A stretch of 32,847 bases of DNA from Thiomicrorhabdus cannonii (GTDB lineage: Bacteria > Pseudomonadota > Gammaproteobacteria > Thiomicrospirales > Thiomicrospiraceae): assembly GCF_013391695.1 (NCBI RefSeq), contig NZ_JACBGH010000015.1, positions 1 through 32,847 of the forward strand, written 5' to 3'. The position numbers and the translations under genes are program-made. Shown here in pieces: positions 1,621 through 31,724 of this stretch. The notes beneath the pieces were generated by a model, which did not search any database, was not told the DNA's origin, and saw only the letters and a list, made by a program, of their open reading frames with translations. Every line of letters begins with the position of its first letter. The stretch's first letter is position 1.

Positions 1621-2066
1621 AACTCGCCGTCCACGTAAACCCAATGGCCCTGCTTGTCGCGCTCGAAGCGACTTTTCTCGGTCATGCGAAAACGCTCCAA
1701 CCCTTGCTGAAACTCAGCACAAAAGGTCACCGACCCTTTTTTATCCTTGGCTCTGCCCTTCTGCGTTTGCAGAATCGTCAGCTTTTGCCAGCTCAAATTT
1801 TCCTCAAACGCAATCTCAACAGGCCGGGTCTTCTCTGCCCAGGTTTGCGCCAGATAATCCGCCAACTTCAAGGCATAAGCACTGTAACGCGAGCGCATCA
1901 GTTGCTCGGCGGTTTGCGCCACCGTCAAACCCGCATGCAAGGGGCCGCAGCATTCAGCATAGGATTTACCGCTGCCGCAAGGGCACGGCTTATGCAAAGC
2001 AGTCTCGTCAACCCGATTTGTCAACAACCCGGCCAGATCAGTCGTTTGCTTATCCAAAATGGACAT
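1614..2066 (-). CDS. ychJ: YchJ-family SEC-C motif protein (UPF0225)
   Basis: 150 residues. The SEC-C motif CPCGSGKSYAECC occupies residues 28-40 with four cysteines (28, 30, 39, 40) for zinc binding, followed by the YchJ-typical AEQLMRSRYSAYA and an NTF2-like middle and C-terminal part ending in WVYVDGEFY. The E. coli relative has about 150 residues, so the length is normal. Molecular function in the family is not established. Its ATG lies 14 bases inside the 3' end of the MATE gene, suggesting translational coupling as the last gene of an operon. Its 3' end overlaps the convergent 42-residue gene by 7 bases. A copy of the CAACAGGCCGGG repeat lies inside it (1817-1828), read in a Thr-Arg-Pro-Val frame. 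Confidence 0.92.
   Translation of the reverse strand: MSILDKQTTDLAGLLTNRVDETALHKPCPCGSGKSYAECCGPLHAGLTVAQTAEQLMRSRYSAYALKLADYLAQTWAEKTRPVEIAFEENLSWQKLTILQTQKGRAKDKKGSVTFCAEFQQGLERFRMTEKSRFERDKQGHWVYVDGEFY
1817..1828 (+). repeat. Copy of the CAACAGGCCGGG dispersed motif (inside ychJ)
   Basis: Reads CTCAACAGGCCGGGTC when extended to 1815-1830. It is used here in a different codon frame (T-R-P-V on the minus strand) from the Ala-Gly-Leu frame seen in other genes, which argues against amino-acid composition as the only cause. Confidence 0.6.
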
Positions 2067-3423
2067 TAAATTGCCTTTTTAAACGCCATGCCAACAGAAC
2101 CGCCGCCAAACTCAAGCCGATCACAATCCCCAACCAGAAACCGCTAACGCCAAGCGGCTCCGCCGACAGCCAGTCGGTATAGGCCAACACATAACCGCCG
2201 GCCAAACCGATGATCCAATAACTCAAGAAGGTCACCAGCATCGTCACCCGCGTGTCGTGCAATCCGCGCAAGGCTCCGGCACACGCCACCTGGATGGCAT
2301 CGAACACCTGATACGCCGCCGCATACACCAGTAAAGTCACCGCCACCGCCAACACGGCGTCATCGCTCGAATAGATGCCGACAATCTCGTGCCGGAAAAA
2401 ATACGTCAATAGCGACAAGCTGCCGCCAATCACCAAGGCCGCACCCAAACCGGCATACAGACTCAGCAACATCGCGGCACGGTTATGCGCGCCATAGTGT
2501 TTACCCACCCTGACCGTGATCGCCATCGCCACACTCAACGGCAGCATGAACACCATGGAGGTAAAACTGATTGCCACCTGATGCCCGGCAATCACCTCCA
2601 CACCGAGTTTGACAATAAACAGCGCAATAAAACTGAATAGGCTGACTTCGAACAGCAATGCCAACGAATTGGGAATGCCCAGATTCAAAATATCATTCAT
2701 GCCCGCTTGCCATCTTGGAGCGATACTCTGCCAGCCATGCAAAAAAGGGCGCGTCACAGCGGAGCGGAACACATACAACAATCCCGCGGCAAACATCAAC
2801 CACATGACAATCGCACTGGCCACACCGCACCCCGCCGCGCCCAGTGCCGGAACCGGGCCGTAACCGTAAATAAACAACGCATTGAGCGGAATGTTAAAAA
2901 ACAGCGCCAGAAAACTGATCCACATGGTGGCCTGGGTGGTGCCCAGCCCCTCCCAGAAAAAGCGCAACGCCTGATAAAGCGCAATCCCGGGCAAGCCCCA
3001 TGCAATATAAAACAGGTAGTCGCTGGTGAGTTGAAAAACGTTGGGAGAGAGATCAAGCCAGCGCAACAGCCCGTCAAGGTTCAGCATGACTAGAACCGAA
3101 ACAGCGCCCAGCGGCAGCGCCAACCACAAGCCCTGTTGCAGATAAACCCGGATCGCATCGGCGTTACCGGCGCCCTCCTGCTTGGAGATCAGCGGCGTCA
3201 ACGCCAGCAGAACGCCGGTCGAGAAGATAAAGACCGGCAACATGATATTGGAACCCAGACCAATGGCCGCCAGATCGTCCGTGCCCACCCAGCCGGACAT
3301 GATCGTGTCCACAAACCCCAGTGCCGTCAGTGCCAGCTGTGCAAAAAAGATCGGCAACGCCAGTTTGAATAAAAGCCGTAATTCGCTCTGGAGCTGTTTG
3401 CCGGAAAAAGGAATGGCACTCAT
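2050..3423 (-). CDS. MATE-family multidrug/cation antiporter (NorM-like)
   Basis: 457 residues, almost wholly hydrophobic with about 12 predicted transmembrane helices in two MatE halves. The N-terminal half begins LALPIFFAQLALTALGFVDT and continues IMSGWVGTDDLAAIGLGSN, typical of NorM/DinF-type exporters that use an Na+ or H+ gradient to expel cationic drugs from the inner membrane. ATG at 3423 is preferred; a TTG 12 bases upstream overlaps the previous gene. It follows the small membrane-protein gene by 8 bases and overlaps ychJ by 17 bases, so it is in the alr-nudF operon. Substrate cannot be told from sequence. Confidence 0.9.
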   Translation of the reverse strand: MSAIPFSGKQLQSELRLLFKLALPIFFAQLALTALGFVDTIMSGWVGTDDLAAIGLGSNIMLPVFIFSTGVLLALTPLISKQEGAGNADAIRVYLQQGLWLALPLGAVSVLVMLNLDGLLRWLDLSPNVFQLTSDYLFYIAWGLPGIALYQALRFFWEGLGTTQATMWISFLALFFNIPLNALFIYGYGPVPALGAAGCGVASAIVMWLMFAAGLLYVFRSAVTRPFLHGWQSIAPRWQAGMNDILNLGIPNSLALLFEVSLFSFIALFIVKLGVEVIAGHQVAISFTSMVFMLPLSVAMAITVRVGKHYGAHNRAAMLLSLYAGLGAALVIGGSLSLLTYFFRHEIVGIYSSDDAVLAVAVTLLVYAAAYQVFDAIQVACAGALRGLHDTRVTMLVTFLSYWIIGLAGGYVLAYTDWLSAEPLGVSGFWLGIVIGLSLAAVLLAWRLKRQFNVHFG

Positions 3424-3431
3424 ACAAAATG

Positions 3432-3851
3432 TCAAAAAGGTCGAGAAGACGAATCTTCCGACTTTTTAGCAGAGCGTTTGGCAGACTCCGACGATTCGGC
3501 TTGACTGCCATCCTGCCAATAGTCACTGCCGAACTCCGTTTCCTGCTCAGTCAAGTCATGATGCTCTGCACCCGCTGGCACTACGGGCATAACCGCCTGC
3601 GGAAAGAGCGCGATAATGAGCAGCTTAAAAGACCAATAGACCGTGGCATAAACCACCACCGCCAACATCAACACCAGCGGGATGCCCAGCAGCAAATCCA
3701 CCAAAATCGCGTCGCCTGCCAACAGCTTGAACCACAGCTCCTTTTCCACAAAGCTGAAATACAGCCACGCCAGCACCGCCAGCCAACTCAACATGACGCC
3801 GATGCGGTTAACCGACGGCTGCAAAACACTGTTTCTAAACAGACATAACAT
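3432..3851 (-). CDS. Small two-helix membrane protein, unknown function
   Basis: 139 residues. Two hydrophobic segments at about 17-36 (IGVMLSWLAVLAWLYFSF) and 51-80 (LLLGIPLVLMLAVVVYATVY) are followed by a hydrophilic Glu/Ser-rich tail of about 50 residues ending KKSEDSSSRPF. No family recognised. ATG at 3851 opens the frame 14 bases after the nudF stop, and the stop lies 8 bases before the MATE start, so it is a middle gene of the operon. It may work with either neighbour, but nothing in the sequence shows this. Confidence 0.7.
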   Translation of the reverse strand: MLCLFRNSVLQPSVNRIGVMLSWLAVLAWLYFSFVEKELWFKLLAGDAILVDLLLGIPLVLMLAVVVYATVYWSFKLLIIALFPQAVMPVVPAGAEHHDLTEQETEFGSDYWQDGSQAESSESAKRSAKKSEDSSSRPF

Positions 3852-3865
3852 ATGAATTTCTCGAA

Positions 3866-4492
3866 CTATTCCGCGCTATGGGCGGACAATTTCTGGAAGA
3901 ACAGCCACTGCAGGGCGATAATCGTGCTGGCCACATTATAGCCGCCGGTCAGCAAGCGTCTTTTGGCCTGTGCAAACGGCACCTTCAGGATTTTGATATC
4001 TTCATTATCCTCAGGCAAACCTGCAAAATCGGCCAATAGCGTGCTGTCGACCTCGGCAGCAAACAGATGCAGTATTTCGTCGCTGCCGCCGGGGCTCGGA
4101 TAAAACTCGCAGATAAATTCGACATCCGCAATCTCGATTCCTGCCTCTTCGATCGCCTCGCGGCGCGCCGCCATCTCAGGCGTTTCTCCCGAATCGATCA
4201 TGCCCGCAACCGGCTCCAACAACCAGGCCTGTTGGTTTTGTTGATGATGCATGGCGCGCGTCAAGGCCCCGGCACGGCACTGCTCTATCAGCACCACTAC
4301 TTCGCGAGACCGATCATACAGCAACAGAACCGCAGCTTCACCGCGCCCAAAGAGTTCGCGGCGGATCGTATCGGTCCAACCGCCTTGATAAAGCGTATGC
4401 TTGAATTCGATCAGATCGATCTTAAAAAATCCGTCGTAACCGCTATTGATGGAATTGATTTTAAAGGACTTGTCATGCTGTTGTTGCGCCAT
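3866..4492 (-). CDS. nudF: NUDIX hydrolase, probable ADP-ribose pyrophosphatase
   Basis: 208 residues. The complete Nudix box (G x5 E x7 REUxEExGU) spans residues 97-119: Gly97, Glu103, Arg111-Glu112, Glu115-Glu116 and Gly118. It is followed by FYPSPGGSDEILHLF, the loop typical of ADP-ribose pyrophosphatases of the NudF/YqiE branch. The enzyme would split ADP-ribose into AMP and ribose 5-phosphate with Mg2+. ATG at 4492 is chosen because AAGGA lies about seven bases upstream; an in-frame TTG at 4516 would overlap alr. The gene starts 10 bases after alr. Substrate preference within the Nudix family is inferred from the loop and length. Confidence 0.9.
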   Translation of the reverse strand: MAQQQHDKSFKINSINSGYDGFFKIDLIEFKHTLYQGGWTDTIRRELFGRGEAAVLLLYDRSREVVVLIEQCRAGALTRAMHHQQNQQAWLLEPVAGMIDSGETPEMAARREAIEEAGIEIADVEFICEFYPSPGGSDEILHLFAAEVDSTLLADFAGLPEDNEDIKILKVPFAQAKRRLLTGGYNVASTIIALQWLFFQKLSAHSAE

Positions 4493-4502
4493 CCTGGTTC
4501 CT

Positions 4503-5576
4503 TTATTGCACTTCAATCATGGGGACGCGCTGCGTCACGCCGCACAACAACTCATAACCGATGGTGCCGGCATAGCGGGCAATCTCATCCACACTCAACT
4601 CCGCTACCCCCCACAGAATCGCCTCGTCGCCGATCTTCACCTCGTCAGCACAATCCGTCAGATCCACACAGATCATGTCCATCGACACCCGTCCGATCAG
4701 CGACATCCGCTGTCCGCGGATCAACACCGGCGTGCCTGTCGGTGCGTGACGCGGATAACCGTCACCGTAACCGATGGCGACAATGCCAACGAAGGTGTCG
4801 CGTTGCGCCTGCCAGGTATTGCCGTAACCGACATACCCGCCCTGCTTAACCCATTTTAGGGCGGTGATCTCCGACACCAGCTTCATAACCGGCTGCAACG
4901 CCGGCTCGCACAGCTCGCAACCACCGGCACCGTACAGCATGATCCCCGGCCGCACCCATTCATAATGCGAGACCGGATAGTTCTGAAGCCCGGCAGAATT
5001 GGCAATACTTCGCGGAAAATCAAAATCTTGCGTGGCATTATTGAAGCAATCAAACTGTTGTCGGGTAAAGGTGTCGGACTCATCCGCCGAGGCAAAATGC
5101 GACATCAGATGCAGCTGAAACGCCTTGCCGCTCGACTGCAAACGTTCGATAACCTGCGGCAGCACCTCGGGATCGAACCCCAGACGATGCATCCCGGTAT
5201 CGATCTTGATCCAAACGTTTAGCGAGCTCTGATGCGGCGAGTCCAACAGCCACTCTACCTGATGCCAGGCATGCACCACCAAATCCAGGCGATGCTGATG
5301 CAGCAGCGGAATTTCGGCAGAGCTGAACAATCCCTCTAGCAACAGAATGCGGTGCAGAAACCCCTTTTGGCGCAATACGATCGCCTCGTCGATCGAAGCC
5401 ACGCCAAAACCGTCTGCCGCGCTGAACTGATGGGCGACACGGGTTACACCGTGACCGTATCCATTGGCTTTTAAAACCGCCAATACCTTGGAATGCGGTG
5501 CGAGAGTCTTAACCACCTGCAAATTGTGACGCAAGGCAGGCAAATGAATATACGCTTTAGCGGGACGGTACATCAT
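4503..5576 (-). CDS. alr: Alanine racemase (PLP-dependent)
   Basis: Interconverts L- and D-alanine for peptidoglycan. The 357-residue protein has the PLP-binding lysine in VLKANGYGHG (Lys36), the catalytic tyrosine in YVGYGNTW (Tyr251) and the GRVSMDM segment of the C-terminal beta domain. Length matches the family. Two adjacent ATG codons (5576 and 5573) can start it, 6 bases after the dnaB stop, so it is co-transcribed with dnaB, as in many gammaproteobacteria. Its downstream partners nudF, a membrane protein and a MATE pump follow with very short spacers. Confidence 0.96.
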   Translation of the reverse strand: MMYRPAKAYIHLPALRHNLQVVKTLAPHSKVLAVLKANGYGHGVTRVAHQFSAADGFGVASIDEAIVLRQKGFLHRILLLEGLFSSAEIPLLHQHRLDLVVHAWHQVEWLLDSPHQSSLNVWIKIDTGMHRLGFDPEVLPQVIERLQSSGKAFQLHLMSHFASADESDTFTRQQFDCFNNATQDFDFPRSIANSAGLQNYPVSHYEWVRPGIMLYGAGGCELCEPALQPVMKLVSEITALKWVKQGGYVGYGNTWQAQRDTFVGIVAIGYGDGYPRHAPTGTPVLIRGQRMSLIGRVSMDMICVDLTDCADEVKIGDEAILWGVAELSVDEIARYAGTIGYELLCGVTQRVPMIEVQ

Positions 5577-5582
5577 ACGGGA

Positions 5583-7046: not shown

Positions 7047-7085
7047 AGCAATAACAAAGACTCATCCACAAAACAACGAGGGATT

Positions 7086-7091
7086 ATTATA
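7086..7091 (-). promoter_or_regulatory. -10 box of a probable dnaB promoter
   Basis: The minus strand reads CGCTATAATAATCC, a perfect TATAAT about 40 bases upstream of the dnaB ATG and downstream of the rplI terminator. No good -35 hexamer is found at 17 bases (CGCAAT), so it would be weak or activator-dependent. Confidence 0.5.
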
Positions 7092-7189
7092 GCGGAATAT
7101 AAACGTGGATTGCGCTTATTGAATAAAGGCATTTTGAATAGCCATATTGAAATAAACGACGTTAAAACGGCAAAAAAACCGCAAAAAAA

Positions 7190-7206
7190 ACTCAACAGGC
7201 CGGGTA
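7190..7206 (+). repeat. Intergenic copy of the ACTCAACAGGCCGGGTA motif
   Basis: A single copy with a long A-rich 5' flank lies between the rplI terminator and the dnaB promoter, outside any gene. It is identical over 17 bases to the left arm of the terminator at 24429-24486. Confidence 0.7.
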
Positions 7207-7225
7207 TCTGACTAAAGAACGGACA

Positions 7226-7261
7226 TAAAAAAAGCGGTGACTTTAAAAAGTCACCGCTTTT
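7226..7261 (-). terminator. Intrinsic terminator of the rpsF-rpsR-rplI operon
   Basis: AAAGCGGTGACTTT (7231-7244) and AAAGTCACCGCTTT (7247-7260) form a perfect stem. On the minus strand the stem is followed by a run of seven T. It lies 27 bases after the rplI stop; T tracts on both sides would allow some action in the other direction too. Confidence 0.9.
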
Positions 7262-7287
7262 ATCAGGCCAGGTTTTCGCTTAAAAAA

Positions 7288-7740
7288 TTAAGCTTGAACG
7301 CCTTTCACTTCAACTGTGATTGAAGCCACTACGTCGGTGTGCAGCTGCACGTCGATTTCGTAAGTACCGATGTGGCGCAGAGCACCTTCCGGCATACGAA
7401 CATTGCGACGCTCAACTTCAAAACCTGCTGCTGCCAATGCATCAGCGATGTCTTGCGTACCCACAGAACCGAACAGTTTGCCTTCATCACCGGCAACTGA
7501 TTCGATAGTGATCACTTGACCATTCAGGTTTTCGTAAACGCCTTGAGCCACAGCCAACTGTGCTGCTGCTGCTTTTTCAAGTTCAGCACGCATTGCATCA
7601 AATTGTGCTACGTTCTCTTTTGTTGCTGGCTTCGCTTTACCCTGAGGAATCAGGAAGTTACGCGCATAACCAGCTTTAACTGAAACTTGGTCACCCAACG
7701 TGCCCAGGTTTTGTACTTTTTCAAGCAGAATAACATTCAT
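7288..7740 (-). CDS. rplI: 50S ribosomal protein L9
   Basis: 150 residues, the usual length. Starts [20 protein letters not shown] with the conserved N-terminal rRNA-binding domain ([13 protein letters not shown]), a long connecting helix and the C-terminal domain. It is the last gene of the rpsF operon and is followed by a strong terminator. Base usage shifts toward the codon preferences of highly expressed genes compared with its neighbours. Confidence 0.98.
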
Positions 7741-7758
7741 GGTTAAAACCTCTTCATT

Positions 7759-8649: not shown

Positions 8650-8680
8650 GCGCTACCTACTTATTTCTGATTCATCAAAA

Positions 8681-8908: not shown

Positions 8909-8911
8909 TTT

Positions 8912-12908: not shown

Positions 12909-13592
12909 CTATTTGAGAATAGATTTTTCTCGTAACAGATTTTCTGCTTGACTGCATACCTGGTCGATATCCAAATCACTCGTATCAATAATGATCGCAT
13001 CATCCGCAGGCTTTAAAGGCGAAGTGGCGCGCGTGGAATCACGCTCGTCTCTTTCTTTAATGTCTTGAATTATTTGATCTATATTAGCACTAAGCCCCTG
13101 ATTTTTCAACTGATTAACACGTCTTTCTGCACGCACTTCCGCCGAGGCGGTTAAATACAACTTTAGTGCCGCCTCAGGAAACACCACCGTGCCCATATCG
13201 CGTCCATCTGCAATCAAGCCGGGTGCCTTGGCAAAGGCCTTTTGGCGCGCCAGCAGAGCCGCGCGCACCTCGGGTATCGCCGCCACCTTGGAGGCCACCG
13301 CGGCAACCTCCTCGGTACGCACTTTAGAGGTCACATCTTCAGCATCATACATAATCGAGGTCGCTACAAACTCGACCGGCAGAATTTCCGCCAAACTGAC
13401 CAGGCCGGGTAAATCATCCAATGCCAGCTTGTTTTTAATGGCGCCAAACGCCAAAGCACGGTATATCGCCCCGCTATCCAAAAAGTGGAACTGGGTCTTA
13501 CAGGTTAAATATTGTGCCAGCGTCCCTTTACCGACGCCGCTTGGACCATCAATTGTCACAATCGGAATCAAATTCGTTTCAGACGCATTCAT
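12909..13592 (-). CDS. cmk: Cytidylate kinase
   Basis: Phosphorylates CMP/dCMP to the diphosphates. 227 residues with P-loop GPSGVGKGT (16-24), LDSGAIYRA and the GRDMGTVVFP motif that binds the nucleotide, plus the CMP kinase-specific insert. ATG at 13592 has AAGGAAG seven bases upstream, better than the GTG at 13598 that overlaps the aroA stop. It follows aroA by 2 bases, as in the gammaproteobacterial supraoperon. One copy of CAGGCCGGGT (13401) lies inside it in the LPGLV frame. Confidence 0.96.
   Translation of the reverse strand: MNASETNLIPIVTIDGPSGVGKGTLAQYLTCKTQFHFLDSGAIYRALAFGAIKNKLALDDLPGLVSLAEILPVEFVATSIMYDAEDVTSKVRTEEVAAVASKVAAIPEVRAALLARQKAFAKAPGLIADGRDMGTVVFPEAALKLYLTASAEVRAERRVNQLKNQGLSANIDQIIQDIKERDERDSTRATSPLKPADDAIIIDTSDLDIDQVCSQAENLLREKSILK
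13401..13410 (+). repeat. Variant copy of the AACAGGCCGGGTA motif (inside cmk)
   Basis: Reads CTGACCAGGCCGGGTAAA: the core CAGGCCGGGTA is kept, but one base of the AAC before it is changed. Confidence 0.45.
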
Positions 13593-18207: not shown

Positions 18208-19302
18208 TTAGACGTGCTTCGCGGCAAACGCTTGCATAAAGGCAATCAACGCATCCACACCCTCTTCCGGCATGGCATTGTAGATACTGGCGCGCATCCC
18301 GCCAAACGCTTTATGTCCTTTTAAACTCAACAGGCCGGCTGCTTTTGACTCTTCCAGGAAAGCCGCATCCAGAGCGTCGTCTTTCAAGGTAAAGGTCACA
18401 TTCATCCATGAACGGTTATGTTTGACGATGCTGTTGCTATAGAAAGCGGAACCGTCGATATAGGCATAAAGCTTTTCCGCCTTGGCGCGATTGCGTTTGG
18501 CAATTTCCGCCACGCCGCCGATCTCTTTGAGCCACGCAAATACCAGTCCGGCCAGATACCATGAGTAAGTCGCCGGCGTATTGAACATCGATTCATTATT
18601 GGCATAGACTTCCCAGTTCAACAGGGTGGGCGTAATGTCGCGCGCCTGCCCCAGCAAATCTTCACGCACAATCACAATCGCAAACCCCGCCGGGCCGATG
18701 TTCTTTTGCGCGCCGGCATAAATCATGCCGTATTTGCTGACATCCACCGGACGGCACATAATGTTCGAGGACATGTCGGCAATCACCGGCTTGCCTTGCG
18801 CAAAAATGGCTTCCAGATCGTCTTCCTGAAATTCCAGACCGGTAATGGTTTCGTTGGAACAGATATGGATGTATTTGGCGTCCGGGCTGAATTTCCATTC
18901 TGCACGAGGTGGAATGGCTGTTGGGTTTTCCCCCTCGCCGGCTGCCACCACGTTCACGTTTACGTAACGTTTGGCTTCTTTGATTGCCTTGGACGACCAG
19001 ACACCGGTATTAAAATAATCGACCGTATCGCCTTCCTGCGTCAAGTTCAGCGGAATCGCCGAAAACTGCAATGACGCGCCGCCGTGCGTGAAAATCACTT
19101 TGTAGTTGGCGGGAATCTGCATCACTTCGCGCAGATCGGCTTCCATCTTATGCAACAACCCCATGTACTCTTTGCTGCGGTGACTCATCTCCATCACCGA
19201 CATACCGGTTTGATGCCAATCCAAAAACTCCGCTTCTGCTTTACGCATCACCGCTTCCGGTAACATCGCCGGACCGGCACTGAAATTGAATGCTCTTGCC
19301 AT
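18208..19302 (-). CDS. serC: Phosphoserine aminotransferase
   Basis: Serine and pyridoxine synthesis. 364 residues starting MARAFNFSAGPAMLPEAVMR, with the PLP lysine in AGAQKNIGPAG and the FTHGGAS substrate segment. First gene after the gyrA terminator, and begins the run serC-pheA-hisC-tyrA-aroA-cmk. It contains an exact copy of ACTCAACAGGCCGG (18325-18338) read as Ala-Gly-Leu-Leu-Ser on its own strand. Confidence 0.97.
   Translation of the reverse strand: MARAFNFSAGPAMLPEAVMRKAEAEFLDWHQTGMSVMEMSHRSKEYMGLLHKMEADLREVMQIPANYKVIFTHGGASLQFSAIPLNLTQEGDTVDYFNTGVWSSKAIKEAKRYVNVNVVAAGEGENPTAIPPRAEWKFSPDAKYIHICSNETITGLEFQEDDLEAIFAQGKPVIADMSSNIMCRPVDVSKYGMIYAGAQKNIGPAGFAIVIVREDLLGQARDITPTLLNWEVYANNESMFNTPATYSWYLAGLVFAWLKEIGGVAEIAKRNRAKAEKLYAYIDGSAFYSNSIVKHNRSWMNVTFTLKDDALDAAFLEESKAAGLLSLKGHKAFGGMRASIYNAMPEEGVDALIAFMQAFAAKHV
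18325..18338 (+). repeat. Exact ACTCAACAGGCCGG copy (inside serC)
   Basis: It has the same 14 bases as the copies at 7190 and 24436, with a TTTTAA flank. Confidence 0.6.
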
Positions 19303-22273: not shown

Positions 22274-22993
22274 ATGACAGAATCGACCGCACACAACTTC
22301 AATGCCGACCCGTCCGAGCTGGACAACTTCAACCGTCTCTCCAGCACCTGGTGGGATACCGAAGGCGAATTTGCCGCCCTGCACAAAATCAACCCATTCA
22401 GACTGGACTTTATCAAGCGCCACCAAGCCATTGAAAAGCAATCCATTCTGGATATCGGTTGCGGCGGTGGCATCCTGTCGGAGGCACTGGCACAGGCCGG
22501 CGCCGACGTCACCGGCATCGATTTGGCCAAAGAGGTATTGACCGTCGCCAAACTGCACGGTTTGGATTCGGGCATCAAGGTCAATTACCAGCTGATTGCC
22601 GCCGAAGACTACGCCGAGCAACACCCTGCAGAGCACGATATCGTCACCTGCATGGAGATGCTGGAACACGTCCCCAATCCGGCGGCGATCATTCAAGCGG
22701 CTGCGGAGGCCGTCAAACCGGGCGGCTGGGTGTTTTTCTCGACGCTTAACCGCAACTACAAAGCCTATCTGCTCGCCATCGTCGCGGCGGAACAGCTCTT
22801 GAATCTGGTGCCCAAGGGCACCCATACCTACGACAAGTTCATTACCCCGGCGGAAATGGATGCCATGGCGCGTCACGCCGGCCTCTACCTGCGTGACAGC
22901 GCCGGCATCGAATTCAACCCGCTGCTTAACCGCTACGGCTTGAACGACCAGGTGGACGTCAATTACCTGCTAGCTTACCAAAAGGCCATCTAA
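22274..22993 (+). CDS. ubiG: Ubiquinone biosynthesis O-methyltransferase
   Basis: 239 residues. SAM-binding motif I DIGCGGGILSEALAQAG, followed by VTGIDLAKE, and the UbiG-specific start LDNFNRLSSTWWDTEGEFAAL. Methylates the two ring hydroxyls during ubiquinone synthesis and associates with the membrane. The ATG at 22274 gives the standard start; an earlier TTG (22226) would add 16 unlikely residues. No strong ribosome site is seen. First gene of the plus-strand operon. The sequence contains one CAGGCCGG (22493). Confidence 0.95.
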   Translation: MTESTAHNFNADPSELDNFNRLSSTWWDTEGEFAALHKINPFRLDFIKRHQAIEKQSILDIGCGGGILSEALAQAGADVTGIDLAKEVLTVAKLHGLDSGIKVNYQLIAAEDYAEQHPAEHDIVTCMEMLEHVPNPAAIIQAAAEAVKPGGWVFFSTLNRNYKAYLLAIVAAEQLLNLVPKGTHTYDKFITPAEMDAMARHAGLYLRDSAGIEFNPLLNRYGLNDQVDVNYLLAYQKAI

Positions 22994-22997: not shown

Positions 22998-23690
22998 ATG
23001 AGTCAAGCCTCTCACACCACAGACGACATCCAATGCATCCTGTTCGATTTGGACGGCACCTTGCTGGACACCTCCTATGACTTCGCCTATGCGCTGAATC
23101 AGGTGCTCAGGGAGTTCGGCGGCCCTCGTCTGCGTTATCAGGACATCCGCAAAACCGTTTCGCAAGGTGGCCTGGCGCTCACCAAACTCGCCTTTCCGCA
23201 CTTGGAGGGTGAAGAATTGGAAATCCGCCGCAAGCGTTTTCTGGACATCTATTTCGATAACATCACCAATCACACGCGTCTTTTCCCCGGCCTGGAAACA
23301 GGATTAGAGCTACTGGCGGAACGCGATATTCCGTGGGGCATTGTCACCAATAAACCCACGTGGCTGACCGAAACGATTCTGCGACGCATGACGTTCCCCA
23401 GCGCCCCTTTGAGCGTCATCGCCGGCGACACGCTGGCGGTGCGCAAGCCCGATCCGGCGCCGATGCATCTGGCGGCCAAAGAGTGCGGCGTGACCCCGGC
23501 GCAATGCCTGTATATCGGCGACCATCCGCGGGATATCGAAGCCGGCATCAACGCCGGCATGAAAACCGGCGCGGCGCTGTTCGGCTTTCTGCCGGAACAC
23601 GAAAGCGACGCCGCCTGGCCTGCCGACTTTTTCTTCGACACGCCGATCGACATCAGCCGCTTTATTGAAACCATCAGAAAAAACCCATAA
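22998..23690 (+). CDS. HAD phosphatase: phosphoglycolate or MurNAc-6-P phosphatase
   Basis: 230 residues of the Gph subfamily: nucleophile motif LFDLDGTLLDT (Asp17, Asp19), motif II IVTNKP, motif III lysine in VRKPDP, and the GDHPRDIEAG metal loop. Two activities fit. Phosphoglycolate phosphatase would matter in a Calvin-cycle autotroph. The order ubiG-this gene-YciK-like SDR is, however, that of Pseudomonas PA3171-PA3173, where the middle gene is MupP, the MurNAc-6-phosphate phosphatase of cell-wall recycling. The VGD-x-RDIE-type segment and the start CILFDLDGTLLDTSYDF agree with MupP as well. It begins 4 bases after ubiG. Confidence 0.85.
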   Translation: MSQASHTTDDIQCILFDLDGTLLDTSYDFAYALNQVLREFGGPRLRYQDIRKTVSQGGLALTKLAFPHLEGEELEIRRKRFLDIYFDNITNHTRLFPGLETGLELLAERDIPWGIVTNKPTWLTETILRRMTFPSAPLSVIAGDTLAVRKPDPAPMHLAAKECGVTPAQCLYIGDHPRDIEAGINAGMKTGAALFGFLPEHESDAAWPADFFFDTPIDISRFIETIRKNP

Positions 23691-23707: not shown

Positions 23708-24403
23708 ATGAGCACCTATTTAGTCACCGGCGCCGCCCAAGGGTTAGGCAAAGCCCTCAGCACGCAACTGCTGCAAGAGGGGCACGACGTCATTCTGCTC
23801 GACAAGGACCTCAAAGCCCTTAACAAGCTCTATGACGAGTTGGAAACGCTAGGAACGGCAGAGCGTGCCGCGCTTTACCCGATGGATCTGCTCGGCGCCA
23901 ATATCGACCATTACGCCGAACTGCAGAGTATTCTGGAAGAAACTTACGGCCAGCTGGACGGCGTCTTTTTAAATGCCGCACTGCTGCCGGCGTTTACGCC
24001 GATCGCCCATTTCGACTACAAACAGTGGTACGAAGTGCTGCACACCGGCCTGAACGCCAATTTCCACCTGATTCAAACCACCCTGCCGTTGCTGCTTAAA
24101 TCGGCCGACGCCAGATTGGTCGCCATCGGTGATGACAACATTCTGCAACATCCCGCATTCTACGGCGCCTACGGTGTTGCCAAAGCGGGTTTGCAGCAAC
24201 TCATGCGCAGCGTGGCCGCCGAAAACCGCGTGCCGCAGCTGCAATGCTATTGGGCGCAACTCGGCACCTTTGCCAGCGAAACCCGCGGCCGGCTTTTCCC
24301 CGGCGAAAATCCGCTCAATCTGCCGCAAGCGGAAAGTGTCGCCCAACATCTGCTGGAAATCGTATCGGAAGGTTTAAACGCCGAAGATATCGAAAAACTC
24401 TAA
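23708..24403 (+). CDS. YciK-like short-chain dehydrogenase (diverged active site)
   Basis: 231 residues with the Rossmann motif TGAAQGLG (7-14) and the Tyr-x3-Lys pair (Tyr155, Lys159, AYGVAKAG). The position of the catalytic serine, 13 residues before the tyrosine, holds Asp142 (AIGDDN) where YciK-type relatives have a Ser-Ser-Ser segment. The NNAG-like motif reads FLNAALL, and the NPGG motif after the active site is lost (AQLGTFAS). The protein may be a degenerate or non-catalytic SDR. It starts 17 bases after the phosphatase gene and ends before the strong terminator. The family role is unknown. Confidence 0.85.
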   Translation: MSTYLVTGAAQGLGKALSTQLLQEGHDVILLDKDLKALNKLYDELETLGTAERAALYPMDLLGANIDHYAELQSILEETYGQLDGVFLNAALLPAFTPIAHFDYKQWYEVLHTGLNANFHLIQTTLPLLLKSADARLVAIGDDNILQHPAFYGAYGVAKAGLQQLMRSVAAENRVPQLQCYWAQLGTFASETRGRLFPGENPLNLPQAESVAQHLLEIVSEGLNAEDIEKL

Positions 24404-24428
24404 ACGGTTATTCGCCATTTTTCGATGC

Positions 24429-24486
24429 TTTAAAAACTCAACAGGCCGGGTAAGAGACTTCCTACCCGGCCTGTTGAGTTTTTAAA
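24429..24486. terminator. Bidirectional terminator built from two inverted CAACAGGCCGGGTA copies
   Basis: A perfect 24-bp inverted repeat (24429-24452 and 24463-24486) with a 10-base loop. Each arm contains ACTCAACAGGCCGGGTA, and the A/T tails give a T run in both directions. It lies between the convergent SDR and DUF502 genes and ends both. The uptake-signal-like arms make it special; see findings. Confidence 0.92.
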
Positions 24487-24499
24487 CGGCGTTTTTTAA

Positions 24500-25102
24500 T
24501 TATTTCTTTTTACCATCCATCGATGCCAAACCGGCCGTCAAAGTGAAGCGCATCGCCTCATCCATTGTCATATCCAGTCGGGTCAGCGCCGTTTGCGGCA
24601 CCAACAGCGTATAGCCGCCGATCATATAACTCAATGGCAGATAGACCAGCACGCTTTCGTTGTCATTAAAGCCTTCCGGCAATTTATCGGCATCGGCGCG
24701 GGTAATAAAACCGATCAGTTTCATGCCGCTTTCGCCAAAAGTGACCGCCACCACCTGCGAAAACTCCTGCTCCTTCTGCGGACGGAAATAATCGAAGAAA
24801 TCGCGCATGGCGCGGTAGATCGGTTTGACGCCCGGCAGACGTTCAAACAATCCTTCGAACTTGCCGAAAATAAGGCGCACCACATAGGCGTGCATCAGCA
24901 CCCCGACGACAAACAAGGCGAGCAGGCCGGCGATAACCCCCATGCCCGGCCAGTAAAACTCGCTGGGCACGACCTGACGGATCAAACCGCCCAGCAGCGA
25001 TTCCGCCGTCACCGCCAACCAGTAAAACAGATACAGCGTCAGCGCCACCGGCAGCACGGTAAACAGACCGGTCAGCATATTGCGCCCCACAAACCCGAAC
25101 AT
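24500..25102 (-). CDS. DUF502 inner-membrane protein
   Basis: 200 residues. Two transmembrane helices (about 7-29 and 53-75), an amphipathic positively charged part (VKPIYRAMRDFFDYFRPQ) and a soluble C-terminal domain with VPQTALTRLDMTMDEAMRFTLTAG, the typical DUF502 ending. Function unknown. ATG at 25102 follows the small membrane gene by 29 bases. Contains one CAGGCCGG (24923), read as Ala-Gly-Leu-Leu-Ala. Confidence 0.9.
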   Translation of the reverse strand: MFGFVGRNMLTGLFTVLPVALTLYLFYWLAVTAESLLGGLIRQVVPSEFYWPGMGVIAGLLALFVVGVLMHAYVVRLIFGKFEGLFERLPGVKPIYRAMRDFFDYFRPQKEQEFSQVVAVTFGESGMKLIGFITRADADKLPEGFNDNESVLVYLPLSYMIGGYTLLVPQTALTRLDMTMDEAMRFTLTAGLASMDGKKK

Positions 25103-25131
25103 ATAAATCCTTTTAAATCAGACAGATAAAA

Positions 25132-25512: not shown

Positions 25513-25535
25513 ACGCTTTCCCTAACCCCAGCCAC

Positions 25536-27164: not shown

Positions 27165-27190
27165 ATTTTGCCTCTTTAGGATTGCGGGGG

Positions 27191-28540
27191 TTATGACGTT
27201 TGCGAACGCGGGTCAAGCACGCGCTGCACCCGGTCCGAAAACAAATTGGCGGCCAGCACCAAACAAAACATAAAAATAAAGGCGGCAAACAGCGACCACC
27301 AGACCATCGGCTCGCGCGCCATTTCCAAACGCGCCTGGTTAATCATATTGCCCCAGCTGTGCATGGTGGGGTCAACCCCTACACCGACATACGACAACAC
27401 CGCCTCCGCCAGCACCAAGCCGCTGAAATCCAGCACCACCGCAATCAGGACAATATGCATCACATTCGGCAGAATGTGGCGGCCGATAATCGTGAAACGG
27501 CTCACGCCAAACGCCCGTGCGGCGGTCACAAACTCGATCTGGCTGATTTTCAGGGTTTCGGCGCGCAGCAGACGGCACAACCCGGTCCAGCTCGTCATTC
27601 CCAGAATCAGCACCAAAAATAGTAGACGCATATCGGCACGCTCCTCGGTGGAGCTGAACCATTCCGGATGGTTGCCGATCATGACCTGCATCACCAGCAC
27701 CGCGGCGGCGATCAGCAAGACGCCCGGAATGGAGTTCAAGGTGGTGTAGAGATACTGAATGACATCATCTACCCAACCTTTGAACAGGCCGGCTGCAATC
27801 CCCAACAGCAAGGCCACCGGCAGCATCACCAAGGTGGTCAGCACACCAATCAGCACGCCGGTGCGGATGCTTTTGAGGCTTTCGTACAACACATCGCCGC
27901 CGACCTTGTCGGTACCCAGCACGTGGTAGGAAAAACTTAATTGATAAAGCCAGCTCATCGCCAACAGCAACAGCAATACCGTCAAGTAAGCCGTTTTCCA
28001 CGGCAGCTGCGTACGCCCCTGCCATACCGCCCGGGCCTGAGCAACAAACGAGACGTCATTAACACGGCTTCGCCACAAAAGATGCACAGCAGTCGCCAAA
28101 GTAAAAATCAACAGGCCGGCCAGCAGAGCTTTGCCGCTTTCCCACAGCATCGAGGCCGCAGGGTTGATATGCTGCAGCGGCTGATAGAGCATCGCCACCG
28201 TGCCGTCCTCCAGCGTCTGCAGGGTACGGTTGTACTCGGTCAAGGCAAACGGCGCCGAATAGGTGCGTTCCTGCACCGTGGCCAAATGCGCCAACAGCGC
28301 GTCAAGCACGCTCTGCAGACCTTGCCCCGCCTCCTGCTGAGTGAAATGAATCGAATCCAGCAACGCCAGCAGCACGTAGAACAGCAGCACAATCGCCGAA
28401 ACCATCGCCACCTTGGATTCAAACACCTGCATCCATTGGCGGCGCACCTGCACCGAACGACTGACGATTCTGCCCCACGCCGCCAGCGCAGCAATCAACC
28501 CCCAAATCAAACCATCGGTCCACAATAAGGTCAGACTCAT
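27191..28540 (-). CDS. yejE: Peptide ABC transporter permease with extended N-terminus
   Basis: 449 residues. The C-terminal part (about 230-445) is a DppC/YejE-type BPD_transp_1 permease: HVLGTDKVGGDVLYESL, and the EAA-like loop EFVTAARAFGVSRFTIIGRHILPN. The first 220 residues add three or four transmembrane helices and a periplasmic loop (about 65-137, DSIHFTQQEAG and ERTYSAPFAL), against about 341 residues in E. coli YejE. ATG at 28540 overlaps the yejB TGA by one base (TGATG). A GTG one codon earlier is possible. Contains two AACAGGCCGG copies (27783, 28110). Confidence 0.9.
   Translation of the reverse strand: MSLTLLWTDGLIWGLIAALAAWGRIVSRSVQVRRQWMQVFESKVAMVSAIVLLFYVLLALLDSIHFTQQEAGQGLQSVLDALLAHLATVQERTYSAPFALTEYNRTLQTLEDGTVAMLYQPLQHINPAASMLWESGKALLAGLLIFTLATAVHLLWRSRVNDVSFVAQARAVWQGRTQLPWKTAYLTVLLLLLAMSWLYQLSFSYHVLGTDKVGGDVLYESLKSIRTGVLIGVLTTLVMLPVALLLGIAAGLFKGWVDDVIQYLYTTLNSIPGVLLIAAAVLVMQVMIGNHPEWFSSTEERADMRLLFLVLILGMTSWTGLCRLLRAETLKISQIEFVTAARAFGVSRFTIIGRHILPNVMHIVLIAVVLDFSGLVLAEAVLSYVGVGVDPTMHSWGNMINQARLEMAREPMVWWSLFAAFIFMFCLVLAANLFSDRVQRVLDPRSQTS
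27783..27792 (+). repeat. AACAGGCCGG copy inside yejE
   Basis: Reads TGAACAGGCCGGCTGC; on the gene strand it encodes Ala-Gly-Leu-Phe. Confidence 0.5.
28110..28119 (+). repeat. AACAGGCCGG copy inside yejE (second)
   Basis: Reads AAAATCAACAGGCCGGCC, with A-rich 5' flank; it encodes Ala-Gly-Leu-Leu-Ile on the gene strand. Confidence 0.5.
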
Positions 28541-29517
28541 CACTGCAACCTCACGCGCGGATCAAAATAGGTATAGGAAATGTCGGTCAGAATCAGGCCG
28601 ACGATATAGAGCACCGAACCGAGGAACACCATCGCCTTGACGATGGCAAAGTCCTGCGCATTGATCGCATCAATGGTATAGCTGCCCAGCCCCGGAATGC
28701 CAAAGAACGACTCCATAATCAAGCTGCCCATAAACAGCGTCGGAATCACCACGACCACGCCGGTCAGAATCGGCAGCAGACCGTTCTGCAACACATGGCC
28801 GAACAGCACCTTGATTTCGGACAGCCCTTTGGCACGCGCCGTGCGCACATAGTCCTTGTTGATCTCCTCCAGAAACAGGCTGCGATACCAGCGCACCCCG
28901 CTGCCCAATCCGGCAAACACCCCGATGACTACCGGCAGAACCACAAACTTCAAACCGTCCCAGCCGCCTTCGTAACCGGAAATCGGCACCCAGTGCCAGA
29001 TTTTGCTGAACAGCAACTGGCCGGCAATGATATAAAACAGCCCCGATACCGACATGATCGCCACCGCCACCATCATGCTCGCCGTGTCCAACACCGAACC
29101 GCGGAACAACACAATCAAAAGCGCTAGGGCGATATTCGTCACCAACGCGATCACAAACGTCGGCAAGGCAATCTGCAGACTCGGCCACATGCGCTCGTAA
29201 ATATCGGCCGAAATCTGCCTTCCGCTGTCAGATTGGCCGAAATCGAACACAAACAGCTTCAAGGATTCTTCCACAAACAAGGTGTCGGAAATTTTCGACA
29301 GGCCGGGTGCCTCGCCATTGAAAAACAGCGGTTTGTCGTAACCGTGATCGGCTTTCCAGGCGGCGATCATCTCCGGTGTGGTCTGTTTGGCACCGAGTTG
29401 CGCACGCGCCATGTCTTCGGGCGTGTTGACCATAAAAAACAGCGCAAAAGTGATCAGATTCACGCCGATCAGAATCGGCACGGCAAACAACAATCGACGA
29501 ATAATATAAGCCAACAT
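28540..29517 (-). CDS. yejB: Peptide ABC transporter permease
   Basis: 325 residues: DppB/YejB-type permease beginning MLAYIIRRLLFAVPILIGVN, with a periplasmic loop (about 35-105) and the C-terminal BPD_transp_1 core (YVRTARAKGLSEIKVLFGHV, ESFFGIPGLGSYTIDAI). The start ATG at 29517 is where the family begins and overlaps the yejA TGA by one base; the frame stays open upstream but within yejA. It pairs with the next permease. Confidence 0.94.
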   Translation of the reverse strand: MLAYIIRRLLFAVPILIGVNLITFALFFMVNTPEDMARAQLGAKQTTPEMIAAWKADHGYDKPLFFNGEAPGLSKISDTLFVEESLKLFVFDFGQSDSGRQISADIYERMWPSLQIALPTFVIALVTNIALALLIVLFRGSVLDTASMMVAVAIMSVSGLFYIIAGQLLFSKIWHWVPISGYEGGWDGLKFVVLPVVIGVFAGLGSGVRWYRSLFLEEINKDYVRTARAKGLSEIKVLFGHVLQNGLLPILTGVVVVIPTLFMGSLIMESFFGIPGLGSYTIDAINAQDFAIVKAMVFLGSVLYIVGLILTDISYTYFDPRVRLQ

Positions 29518-31724
29518 CAGAAACGTTCCTCCGTTGCGACCAGGCGTTTGGTCTGGCGCGCACGATAGGCGCGGTATAGCGGATAAACCGCCAATAGAAG
29601 CAGCGCGAACACTAAGATCAACGGCCAAATGACCGGCTGGTTCCACTGTTGCTGCATCGCCGTCCGTTGTGCGGCGTCGATGCGCTTGTATTTAAGGGTG
29701 TTATTGGCCAACGGATTCGCCCAGACATTGTGATACCAGCCGTGATAGAGCGCCAAGGACTGCGGATAAAAACCCCAAACCCAAGGCGCGTCGCGTTGCG
29801 CAATAGCCACCATCTGCGCAATCAAATCCCGTCTTTCTGGAGAATCGGCCATGGTTTTGATCTGCTCGAACAAGCGGTTGAATTCCGGATTATCGTAATT
29901 GGCGCTGTTGATGCCTGCGCCGTTGGTATGAATCGCCGCATTGCCGCCGTACAGCAAGAACAGGAAGTTTTCCGGATCGGGATAATCGGCATTCCAGCCC
30001 CACACGAACATCTGCGCCTTGGCACCGCGAACCTTGTCCTGAAAACGGTTGTAATCGGTGGCACGAATCACTAGCTCAATCCCCAACTTGGCGAACTGCT
30101 TGCGGTACCAGTTGAGCTGCGCCTTGCTGTCGGGGCCGGTCGCCGGGGTATCAAAATAGAGCGTCAGCGGCGAACCGTCGGGCAGCCGTCCTTCGGGATA
30201 ACCTGCCTCAGCAAGCAGGCGTTTGGCCTGCTCAAGCGCTTTACGTTGTGCGCGGCCGTTTTGCCATTCAAACGTGTAGGGGTTCAACCCGGCCTGTCCG
30301 GTTTGATAACCGCTGATTCCCGGCGGAATCGGCCCTTGTGCGGCCACACCGCGGCCGTTGAGGAAAATGGTGATGTATTCGTCGTAATTCACCGCAATGC
30401 TCAACGCCTGGCGCAGTTTTCGCTGTTGCTCGCTGTAACCGCCCACCACCGGATCGGCCATATTGAATCCAAGATACATAATCGTCGGCTGGACCGTCGT
30501 CAGAAAACCGATGCCCTTATCCTGCATCTCCTGTGTCAGCTGCATACCGCCGCCGGCGCCAATCGAAACCGCCTGGTCGAAACTGTCCGAACTCACACCG
30601 GATGCATCGTAATATCCCTGCAGAAACTTGTTCCACAAAGGCACGCTCTCTTTTTCCAGGGTATAGACCACCTCTTTGATGAACGGCAGCTTTTTGCCGG
30701 CATCGTTCAACAAAGCCGCATCCGCGCCTTCGGCCAAACCATCAACGGGATAGAACTCATCATGAAAATTCGGATTGGCGACAAGCCGCATGCGTTTATT
30801 GGGATTGTTTTCCGCCAGATAATAAGGCCCGGTACCCACCGGCGAGGTATCGAGCGTAATGTTCTTGGCCACCAATCCGGGCTGTTTGTAAAAGCGTTCC
30901 GCTTCCCACGGAATCGGCGCGAAGAAGTTCATGCTCAACCAATAAAGAAACTGCGGATACTCACCTTTAATGCGGATGGAAAATCGATATTTATCAATGA
31001 CTTTTACGCCTGAAATCGCGTAATTCCTTAAATCGAAAAAACGGTTTTTAACTTGCGGATCCCCGGCGATTTTGGCGGCATAATCCTCACTGGCCAAACT
31101 CGAAAACTCGCGCAAACCAACAATGTAATGCTGCATGGTGTCCAGTATCGGCGAGTGGTTCTGGCGCAACCCCATGCGCTTGATGGCATACACATAATCT
31201 TCGGCAAGCAACTCCCGCGTGCCCTGCTCCTTGAAATCCGCCACGCTATGAATCGTTTTGAGTTGCGCCTCACTCAAATCGCCGTACTTGAGGCGCCCGT
31301 CCTGCATCACAAAAGCCGGATGCGGCTGGTAAAAGACATTGGGCTTTAACGTCAAGGTGTATTCGCTGTAAGCAACGGTTTGATTGTTTTGCAGCGCTTG
31401 CCCCGCAGCGTTCAAATAGCGAACCTCAGGCAGTGTTTGCAGGGTCAACGGCTCCAGCGTATAAGGACGTTTTAGATAATGATATTGCAGAGGCGGTTCG
31501 TAGATTTGTCCAAGAATAGACCATTCGTTGGAACTGTAGGAGACTACCGGATCGAGGTGCTTGGGCGGTTCGGAAAAGGAACTGAACAAGGTGGACGACT
31601 CAATCTGCGCATGGCTATAAGGCTGATTCCACAACGCTTGACAGCCGACTGACGAAAATACCGAAAAAAGCAGCAACGCCGACAACAGAAAAACAGACAA
31701 TCCGTTGGTTTTTGCAGACCCCAT
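29517..31724 (-). CDS. yejA: Peptide-binding protein of the Yej importer, possibly anchored at both ends
   Basis: 735 residues, longer than the usual 600. The SBP_bac_5 fold is seen in DPVVSYSSNEWSILGQIYEP, MYLGFNMADPVVGGYSEQ, RQALSIAVNYDEY and NADYPDPENFLFLLYGG. The N-terminus looks like a lipoprotein signal (SVFLLSALLLFSVFSSVGC, Cys28), with Ser at the -3 position, less usual for a lipobox. Near the C-terminus (about 700-717, WPLILVFALLLLAVYPLY) lies a transmembrane helix followed by a basic tail (RARQTKR). ATG at 31724 is assumed; a GTG at 31739 would add five residues (VKNRW). First gene of the operon. Confidence 0.87.
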   Translation of the reverse strand: MGSAKTNGLSVFLLSALLLFSVFSSVGCQALWNQPYSHAQIESSTLFSSFSEPPKHLDPVVSYSSNEWSILGQIYEPPLQYHYLKRPYTLEPLTLQTLPEVRYLNAAGQALQNNQTVAYSEYTLTLKPNVFYQPHPAFVMQDGRLKYGDLSEAQLKTIHSVADFKEQGTRELLAEDYVYAIKRMGLRQNHSPILDTMQHYIVGLREFSSLASEDYAAKIAGDPQVKNRFFDLRNYAISGVKVIDKYRFSIRIKGEYPQFLYWLSMNFFAPIPWEAERFYKQPGLVAKNITLDTSPVGTGPYYLAENNPNKRMRLVANPNFHDEFYPVDGLAEGADAALLNDAGKKLPFIKEVVYTLEKESVPLWNKFLQGYYDASGVSSDSFDQAVSIGAGGGMQLTQEMQDKGIGFLTTVQPTIMYLGFNMADPVVGGYSEQQRKLRQALSIAVNYDEYITIFLNGRGVAAQGPIPPGISGYQTGQAGLNPYTFEWQNGRAQRKALEQAKRLLAEAGYPEGRLPDGSPLTLYFDTPATGPDSKAQLNWYRKQFAKLGIELVIRATDYNRFQDKVRGAKAQMFVWGWNADYPDPENFLFLLYGGNAAIHTNGAGINSANYDNPEFNRLFEQIKTMADSPERRDLIAQMVAIAQRDAPWVWGFYPQSLALYHGWYHNVWANPLANNTLKYKRIDAAQRTAMQQQWNQPVIWPLILVFALLLLAVYPLYRAYRARQTKRLVATEERF

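What the first reader, a model, noticed from the sequence alone, without database searches (positions are those of the whole stretch)
1817..30296. Over-represented motif AACAGGCCGG(GTA): a candidate DNA uptake sequence
Reading both strands by eye I find AACAGGCCGG at 1818, 7194, 18329, 24440, 24466 (minus), 27783 and 28110: seven copies, where a random 10-mer would be expected about 0.06 times in this length (2 x 32847 / 4^10). Shorter CAGGCCGG occurs about 14 times (also 13401, 22493, 23287, 24045, 24923, 29299, 30289; about one expected). Longer copies share ACTCAACAGGCCGGGTA and an A-rich 5' flank. Copies lie in genes in different frames (Thr-Arg-Pro-Val in ychJ, Gln-Ala-Gly in yejA) and between genes, once as an inverted pair forming a terminator. 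That combination matches the Haemophilus USS and Neisseria DUS. Caveat: several copies encode Ala-Gly-Leu with common codons (GCC GGC CTG), which inflates the count; the intergenic and ychJ copies do not have this excuse.
Basis: partly seen in the sequence, partly recalled or inferred. Interest (0 to 1): 0.85.

Follow-up and report, generated by a model that had tools for sequence, protein, structure and literature searches.

The report
DNA-uptake-type watermark in Thiomicrorhabdus
A marine sulfur-oxidising bacterium carries hundreds of copies of one short DNA word that looks like the 'self' tag some bacteria use when taking up DNA, and its relatives carry palindromic versions of the same word, so a further bacterial family probably has such tags.

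Summary
In detail: 7 AACAGGCCGG and 14 CAGGCCGG in the window. The genome, a Thiomicrorhabdus near T. chilensis, has 659 copies of the 10-mer against 8 of the reversed control. Codon usage does not explain it: 86 copies in coding sequence against 10.9 +/- 3.2 after synonymous shuffling. The motif has DUS/USS hallmarks: an A-tract-extended consensus, a five-fold higher density between genes, and close inverted pairs, 14 of 15 in the terminator-forming +- order. New: 34 of 62 genomes of the family carry words sharing CAGGCC[T/G]G. Many are 12-bp palindromes such as ACCAGGCCTGGT; the window's AACAGGCCGGGT looks like a derived, non-palindromic dialect, with some sites at the same gene positions as T. 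chilensis CAGGCCTG sites. If ancestral, it was lost at least three times within the genus. Best explanation: a further family with DNA uptake sequences. Caveats: uptake is untested; no receptor was found; canonical PilQ and ComP-type pilins were not detected in the 37 family genomes searched; this genome's comEC is split by a Mu-like prophage without AACAGGCCGG.

The parts
1818..1827 (+). AACAGGCCGG copy, antisense inside a 150-aa YchJ-like gene (1614-2066 minus); T. chilensis has CAGGCCTG at the aligned place
7194..7203 (+). AACAGGCCGG copy with full extended consensus (AAAAACTCAACAGGCCGGGTA), intergenic between dnaB and the ribosomal protein L9 gene; no CAGGCCTG or CAGGCCGG found at the corresponding place in T. 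chilensis
13401..13408 (+). CAGGCCGG core copy (ACCAGGCCGGGTAA)
18329..18338 (+). AACAGGCCGG copy inside serC; T. chilensis has AGCAGGCCTGCT at the aligned place
22493..22500 (+). CAGGCCGG core copy inside ubiG (flanks do not fit; may be chance or codon-driven)
23287..23294 (-). CAGGCCGG core copy
24045..24052 (-). CAGGCCGG core copy
24432..24483 (.). inverted +- pair of the motif (24440 plus, 24466 minus) between a convergent SDR-type gene and a DUF502 gene; predicted terminator hairpin with A/T tails; T. chilensis has one 24-bp palindrome plus T-tail in this junction
24923..24930 (+). CAGGCCGG core copy
27783..27792 (+). AACAGGCCGG copy inside an OppC-like permease gene; T. chilensis and G005 have CAGGCCTG at the aligned place with the same flank CCTTTGAA
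28110..28119 (+). AACAGGCCGG copy in the same permease gene
29299..29306 (+). GACAGGCCGGGT core copy; T. chilensis and G005 have CAGGCCTG at the aligned place
30289..30296 (-). CAGGCCGG core copy
4224..4231 (.). old-dialect palindromic core CAGGCCTG (AACCAGGCCTGTTGG), present at the aligned place in T. chilensis

Best explanation
The motif is a DNA uptake sequence of the DUS/USS kind. Naturally competent cells of this lineage preferentially bind and pull in DNA that carries it, through a type IV pilus machine and ComEC; repeated uptake and recombination of self DNA builds up and keeps hundreds of copies (molecular drive). The extended target here is a W-rich block (-21 to -18), about 8 free bases, an A-tract, CTC, AACAGGCCGGGT. 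The family's older target is probably the palindrome ACCAGGCCTGGT and variants; a change of receptor specificity in the window's lineage (the same word abounds in genome G004) turned the core CAGGCCTG into CAGGCCGG. Close inverted pairs, and in palindrome dialects single sites, were co-opted as terminators. Shown here: copy number, statistics, architecture, related words in relatives, sites at aligned places. Inferred: competence, a sequence-specific receptor (most likely a minor pilin; the type IVa-like pilus genes found in this genome are MSHA-type), the drive, and terminator activity.
For: 659 copies against 8 control. Highest-count 10-mer in the sample. Coding copies 86 against 10.9 +/- 3.2 after synonymous shuffling; density between genes 7.86 against 1.54 per 10 kb; 32 of 81 intergenic copies with both neighbours known lie between convergent genes, which make up 16.9 of 89.4 kb of intergenic DNA. 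Neighbouring copies with a gap of 20 bp or less: 14 +-, 0 -+, 1 --, the order reported for Neisseria and Pasteurellaceae (PMC1852404, section 10 read). A-tract and second W block also in the 138 unpaired copies. One-mismatch 12-mers 65 against 4.9 expected. No copy in a 36.7-kb prophage, about 9 expected at the sample's mean density. Related words in 34 of 62 family genomes, 25 hits or fewer in the other 28; in four motif-free genomes CAGGCCTG shows no excess (4 against 5.8 +/- 2.1). At aligned CAGGCCTG sites with the other 7 bases conserved, G000 has G in 9 comparisons (7 distinct sites), T at 3 distinct sites and A at 1; control words give G in 179 of 3125. ComEC found in 50 of 58 genomes, this one included.
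Against: No uptake experiment. comEC of this genome is split by a Mu-like prophage, so this strain is probably not transformable now. ComEC is also present in most motif-free relatives, so it does not track the motif; nor do pilin counts or secretins. No PilQ over cut-off and no ComP-type pilin over cut-off in 37 family genomes. dprA, comEA, pilT and a ComN/PpdA-type pilin were not searched. Only 9 of 47 aligned G000 core sites face CAGGCCTG in a relative, and 30 of 42 aligned relative sites face neither word in G000, so the switch at fixed sites rests on few cases. No uptake sequence that I read about is a palindrome, and palindromes are also what methyltransferases and dimeric regulators bind.
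Confidence: 0.83

Rival explanations
1. A highly iterated palindrome of the HIP1 kind: the family motif (ACCAGGCCTGGT, inner AGGCCT/GGCC) is kept by a DNA methyltransferase and a repair or replication function inside the cell, not by uptake.
For: Many of the relatives' words are perfect palindromes. PMC4390886 (passages read) ties HIP sequences to orphan methyltransferases.
Against: C5-methyltransferase PF00145 has no hit in 12 of the 20 motif-bearing family genomes and has hits in 8 of the 17 motif-free ones, so it does not track the motif. The window's dialect is not a palindrome yet is abundant with the same kind of architecture. The A-tract and W block outside the core and the close +- pairs are not expected for a methylation site. 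N4/N6 methyltransferases were not searched.
Confidence: 0.09
2. Binding sites of an intracellular DNA-binding protein (nucleoid-associated, chromosome-segregation or global regulator), or a Chi-like recombination hotspot.
For: Palindromic words would suit a dimeric protein; copies are spread over the sampled stretches (per-locus counts).
Against: Chi/KOPS-like sites are strand-biased (recalled); here 337/322 genome-wide and 46/42 in the C1 sample. The +- pair excess and the core change at aligned sites are not expected. Loss in several clades would be costly for a core chromosome function.
Confidence: 0.06
3. Codon-usage or compositional artefact (Gln-Ala-Gly / Ala-Gly-Leu runs).
For: 36 of the 46 wholly genic copies in the first sample use just two readings, QAG in sense or AGL/PGL in antisense.
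Against: Synonymous shuffles give 10.9 +/- 3.2, observed 86; about half of copies are intergenic; reversed control 8 genome-wide; T. chilensis has only 18.
Confidence: 0.01
4. Terminator-derived or mobile repeat family (REP/MITE-like) spread by copying.
For: 14 close +- pairs; the one folded forms a strong hairpin.
Against: Similarity between copies stops at the extended motif (background from about offset +13 and upstream of about -21); most copies are single (138 unpaired copies away from stretch ends, of 174) and about half touch genes; most aligned sites have turned over between species.
Confidence: 0.01

Closest known systems
Haemophilus/Pasteurellaceae uptake signal sequence (USS; AAGTGCGGT, Apl subtype ACAAGCGGT)
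   Same: About 10-bp core in hundreds of copies on both strands; A/T blocks spaced beside the core (H. influenzae aaAAGTGCGGTnrwwwwwnnnnnnrwwwww, PMC1852404 section 10); subtypes in sister species (PMC3630211 passage); +- pairs as terminators.
   Different: Unrelated core; both W blocks lie on the AA side of this core, in H. influenzae on the far side; related words here are often palindromes; different family.
Neisseriaceae DNA uptake sequence (DUS) and its dialects
   Same: Family-wide dialects with an invariant core, distributed with phylogeny and missing from some genomes (PMC3630211, passages read); strong +- pair bias (PMC1852404).
   Different: Uptake sequences there are not palindromes (PMC1939737, passage); ComP-type receptor (Pfam PF16732) not detected over cut-off in 37 genomes of this family.
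Cyanobacterial HIP1 (GCGATCGC)
   Same: Highly iterated palindrome with variants in related genomes (compare the palindromic words).
   Different: HIP sequences are tied to orphan methyltransferases (PMC4390886, passages); here no association with C5-methyltransferases, a non-palindromic dialect, an A-tract and terminator pairs.

Membership tests
DUS/USS-type DNA uptake sequence | short motif over-represented by one to two orders of magnitude, both strands alike | tested here: met
   659 against 8 control, 337/322 by strand; 95 against 2.3 Markov expectation in the sample
DUS/USS-type DNA uptake sequence | not explained by codon usage; present in genes and in excess between genes | tested here: met
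   86 against 10.9 in coding sequence; five-fold higher density between genes
DUS/USS-type DNA uptake sequence | extended motif with A/T-rich blocks, also in unpaired copies | tested here: met
   138 unpaired copies
DUS/USS-type DNA uptake sequence | closely spaced inverted pairs in +- order at terminators | tested here: met
   14 of 15 neighbours with a gap of 20 bp or less are +-; at 21-60 bp 0 of 5 are; window pair folds at -40.1 kcal/mol; terminator activity not testable here
DUS/USS-type DNA uptake sequence | dialects in related species | tested here: met
DUS/USS-type DNA uptake sequence | natural competence machinery (ComEC, type IV pilus, DprA, ComEA) | tested here: inconclusive
   comEC present but split by a prophage; MSHA-type pilus genes present, PilQ over cut-off absent; DprA and ComEA not searched
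DUS/USS-type DNA uptake sequence | preferential uptake of motif-bearing DNA | not testable with these tools
   needs an uptake or transformation assay
Neisserial DUS proper | DUS word read by ComP | tested here: not met
   no PF16732 match over cut-off in 37 family genomes (one sub-threshold hit, G020); word unrelated to DUS
Pasteurellaceae USS proper | core AAGTGCGGT or ACAAGCGGT | tested here: not met
   core differs; receptor candidate ComN/PpdA not searched
HIP1-type highly iterated palindrome | perfect palindrome | tested here: not met
   window dialect is not palindromic, although relatives' words are
HIP1-type highly iterated palindrome | associated methyltransferase | tested here: inconclusive
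   no C5-methyltransferase hit in 12 of 20 motif-bearing family genomes; N4/N6 enzymes not searched

The most novel reading that the evidence does not exclude
An independent invention of uptake sequences in a family of chemolithoautotrophs, in which the ancestral word is a perfect 12-bp palindrome read symmetrically by an unknown receptor on an MSHA-type pilus. One lineage broke the symmetry to an oriented word (AACAGGCCGGGT), which would let receptor symmetry, orientation of uptake and dialect divergence be tested directly.
Probability: 0.4. Interest if true: 0.9.

Novelty: new variant of a known kind. Interest (0 to 1): 0.82.

Why it matters
The papers I saw describe uptake sequences in Neisseriaceae and Pasteurellaceae (PMC7811141, start of abstract as listed; PMC1939737, passages). 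A further family with several dialects, several apparent losses and a palindrome-to-asymmetric switch would be a natural experiment on open questions: how such words arise, how receptor and word change together, and whether they act as barriers between species. T. chilensis is a deposited strain (DSM 12352, record title), so uptake can be assayed directly. The prophage inside comEC adds a case of a mobile element breaking the uptake machine.

Tried and rejected
Pfam GspH/FimT (PF12019) over 32 genus genomes: 3 weak hits, which I judge to be type II secretion GspH from their place among the clustered pilin hits; no receptor lead. Pfam ComP_DUS (PF16732) over 58 genomes: none over cut-off in the family, 14 over cut-off in other families that lack the motif. 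N-methyl pilin counts in 40 genomes and in G000: no clear difference between motif-bearing and motif-free genomes. PilQ model: below-cut-off secretins that I judge GspD, MshL-like and Tad-like; presence does not track the motif in the part of the list shown. C5-methyltransferase: no association. Site-by-site conservation is low. The tree uses ComEC and four linked genes with much missing data for some genomes; G032 sits on a long branch among outgroups and is not interpreted; some inner nodes are weakly supported. In G036 the top de novo words came from a local repeat; its motif was seen by pattern. Pattern searches used exact matches only. Literature: searches showed no report of such a motif in these genera (open-licence PMC papers only; one search listed 20 of 259 papers, 12 of 71).
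Full report
Observation. The host genome G000 (2,493,962 bases, 59 contigs, 99.98% complete) holds 659 AACAGGCCGG, 337 and 322 by strand, against 8 for the reversed pattern. The window's SerC is nearest to Thiomicrorhabdus chilensis (84% identity). So this is a Thiomicrorhabdus. The GTDB family name Thiomicrospiraceae is recalled, from no call; the other genera (g2 to g6, g28) are unnamed here.

Is it more than codon usage? In 432.8 kb (20 systematic 20-kb stretches of contig C1 plus the window) it is the 10-mer with the highest count, 95 against a Markov expectation of 2.3. In a larger 684.8-kb sample there are 174 copies: 85 between genes and 89 touching genes, that is 7.86 and 1.54 per 10 kb. 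Inside called coding sequence 86 copies are seen against 10.9 +/- 3.2 (maximum 18 of 100) when synonymous codons are shuffled within genes (the smaller sample gave 47 against 6.2 +/- 2.2, maximum 12 of 200). Genes were called by a simple open-reading-frame and codon-score script of mine, not a standard annotator.

Anatomy. In 138 unpaired copies the consensus is W-rich at -21 to -18, about 8 free bases, A-rich from -9 to -4, then CTC, AACAGGCCGG, G, T. Among one-mismatch forms of AACAGGCCGGGT (124 copies), positions 3 to 8 and 10 allow at most three changes each, while G at 1, G or C at 2 and C or T at 11 are commoner; in all 65 one-mismatch words against 4.9 expected. Neighbouring copies with a gap of 20 bp or less are 14 in +- order, 0 in -+ and 1 in --; at 21 to 60 bp there are 3 -+, 1 ++, 1 --. 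The window's pair at 24440/24466 lies between convergent genes and folds at -40.1 kcal/mol with A and T tails, 0 of 200 shuffles as strong. This orientation bias is what Kingsford and colleagues describe for uptake sequences in Neisseria and Pasteurellaceae (PMC1852404, section 10 read).

Relatives. AACAGGCCGG itself is abundant only in G000 and one other genus member, G004 (383); the other 30 genus members have 0 to 29, T. chilensis 18. Word counts without prior choice in 20 to 100 kb of relatives then showed related words. G009, G015, G016, G019, G021 and G030 carry the perfect palindrome ACCAGGCCTGGT; G005 and G018 AACAGGCCTGTT-like words; T. chilensis mixed A[GCA]CAGGCCTG[GCT]T. G003 (100 kb), G014 (80 kb), and G011, G013, G020, G024, G026 and G031 (20 kb each) showed no such word among the top ones (flanks and further genomes). 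With the pattern AVCAGGCCKGBT, 34 of 62 genomes of the family have 193 to 1653 strand hits (palindromes count twice) and 28 have 0 to 25: genus g1 17 of 32, g5 9 of 9, g6 7 of 11, g3 1 of 1, g2 0 of 4, g4 0 of 1, g28 0 of 4. The 21 genomes from other families of the class have 0 to 31. In the relatives' dialects too the word is in excess in coding sequence: CAGGCCTG 50 against 7.2 in T. chilensis and 52 against 10.8 in G005 plus G018, CCAGGCCTGG 43 against 1.0 in five genomes; densities are also higher between genes. Four motif-free genomes show no excess of CAGGCCTG (4 against 5.8).

History. A tree from ComEC and four linked genes puts motif-bearing genomes in several genera and through much of Thiomicrorhabdus, so the motif is most simply ancestral. 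If so it was lost within the genus at least in {G011, G013, G014, G020, G023, G024, G026}, in G003 and in {G001, G012, G017, G022, G028}, and in parts of other genera. G000 is sister to G018, T. chilensis, G005 and G008, whose words have the core CAGGCCTG, so CAGGCCGG looks derived. At window 1818, 18329, 27783 and 29299 T. chilensis has CAGGCCTG where the window has CAGGCCGG, while 4224 keeps CAGGCCTG in both. Where the other seven bases are conserved, the relatives' T is G in 9 comparisons (7 distinct sites), T at 3 distinct sites and A at 1; control words ending in TG give G in 179 of 3125. Against this, most sites have turned over: of 47 aligned comparisons of G000 CAGGCCGG only 9 face CAGGCCTG, and of 42 aligned relative CAGGCCTG sites 9 face CAGGCCGG, 3 face CAGGCCTG and 30 neither. 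At the 24440/24466 junction T. chilensis has one 24-bp palindrome followed by Ts, a weaker predicted hairpin (-12.4 kcal/mol, 2 of 200 shuffles as strong): apparently the same terminator built from two dialects.

Machinery. ComEC is in 50 of 58 genomes, motif-bearing and motif-free. In G000 it is split: one part aligns to T. chilensis residues 1 to about 610 at C1:88051-89832, the rest at C1:50566-51357, with a prophage between that I call Mu-like from its transposase (phrog_310) and transposition protein (phrog_296), with terminase and baseplate genes. The 36.7-kb insert has no AACAGGCCGG and four CAGGCCGG. None of 37 family genomes has a PilQ over the TIGR02515 cut-off. The secretins found in G000 are, in my judgement, a type II GspD beside clustered pseudopilins, an MshL-like one (242.6 bits, just under its cut-off of 250.2) beside an ATPase with an MshE-related domain, and a Tad-like one beside a Flp pilin. 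ComP_DUS gave no match over cut-off in the family. DprA, ComEA, PilT and ComN/PpdA were not searched.

Mechanism. The most likely reading is a sequence-specific uptake system: a pilus-borne receptor prefers the word, uptake and recombination of self DNA maintain it, and inverted copies were co-opted as terminators. What is shown is the genomic footprint; competence, receptor and drive are inferred. The split comEC means this strain is probably not transformable at present; the intact motif density suggests, but does not show, that the insertion is recent. An intracellular role (methylation, nucleoid protein, Chi-like) is less likely because of strand symmetry, the terminator pairs, the A-tract architecture, the non-palindromic dialect and the lack of association with C5-methyltransferases.

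Comparison and novelty. The pattern repeats what is known for Neisseria dialects (PMC3630211, passages) and for Pasteurellaceae subtypes, in another family with an unrelated word. PMC12616744 (abstract read) proposes the minor pilin ComN as USS receptor, a lead for the search here. Palindromic uptake words were not described in what I read (PMC1939737 says uptake sequences are not palindromes). Ten paper searches showed no report for these genera, with the limits of an open-licence library and of the rows listed.

Noticed in passing
G000:C1 about 51.3-88.1 kb (L034, L261, L035, L202): Mu-like prophage inserted in comEC near residue 610 (T. chilensis numbering); contains no AACAGGCCGG.
   Followed up: partly
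G062 (genus g2), C69:205-242 and other contigs: A genome of an otherwise motif-free genus has 25 pattern hits, several AACAGGCCGGGT including one inverted pair: contamination of the assembly or transferred DNA.
   Followed up: no
G010: Motif-bearing genome (703 hits, 86% complete) with no N-methyl pilin and no secretin hit: recent loss of pili and type II secretion, or missing contigs.
   Followed up: no
L046:10246-14998 and L258:11750-15143: Two clusters of unusually long pilin-like proteins (about 260 to 500 aa), perhaps MSHA-associated; candidates for receptor searches.
   Followed up: partly
L259:6636-7175: Orphan 179-aa prepilin between genes that I read as hslV and xerC; only weak GspG similarity at its N-terminus.
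   Followed up: partly
window 1-130: Contig end with a stretch (acccccaaa...tttgggggt) resembling an insertion-sequence end; the contig may break at an IS copy.
   Followed up: no
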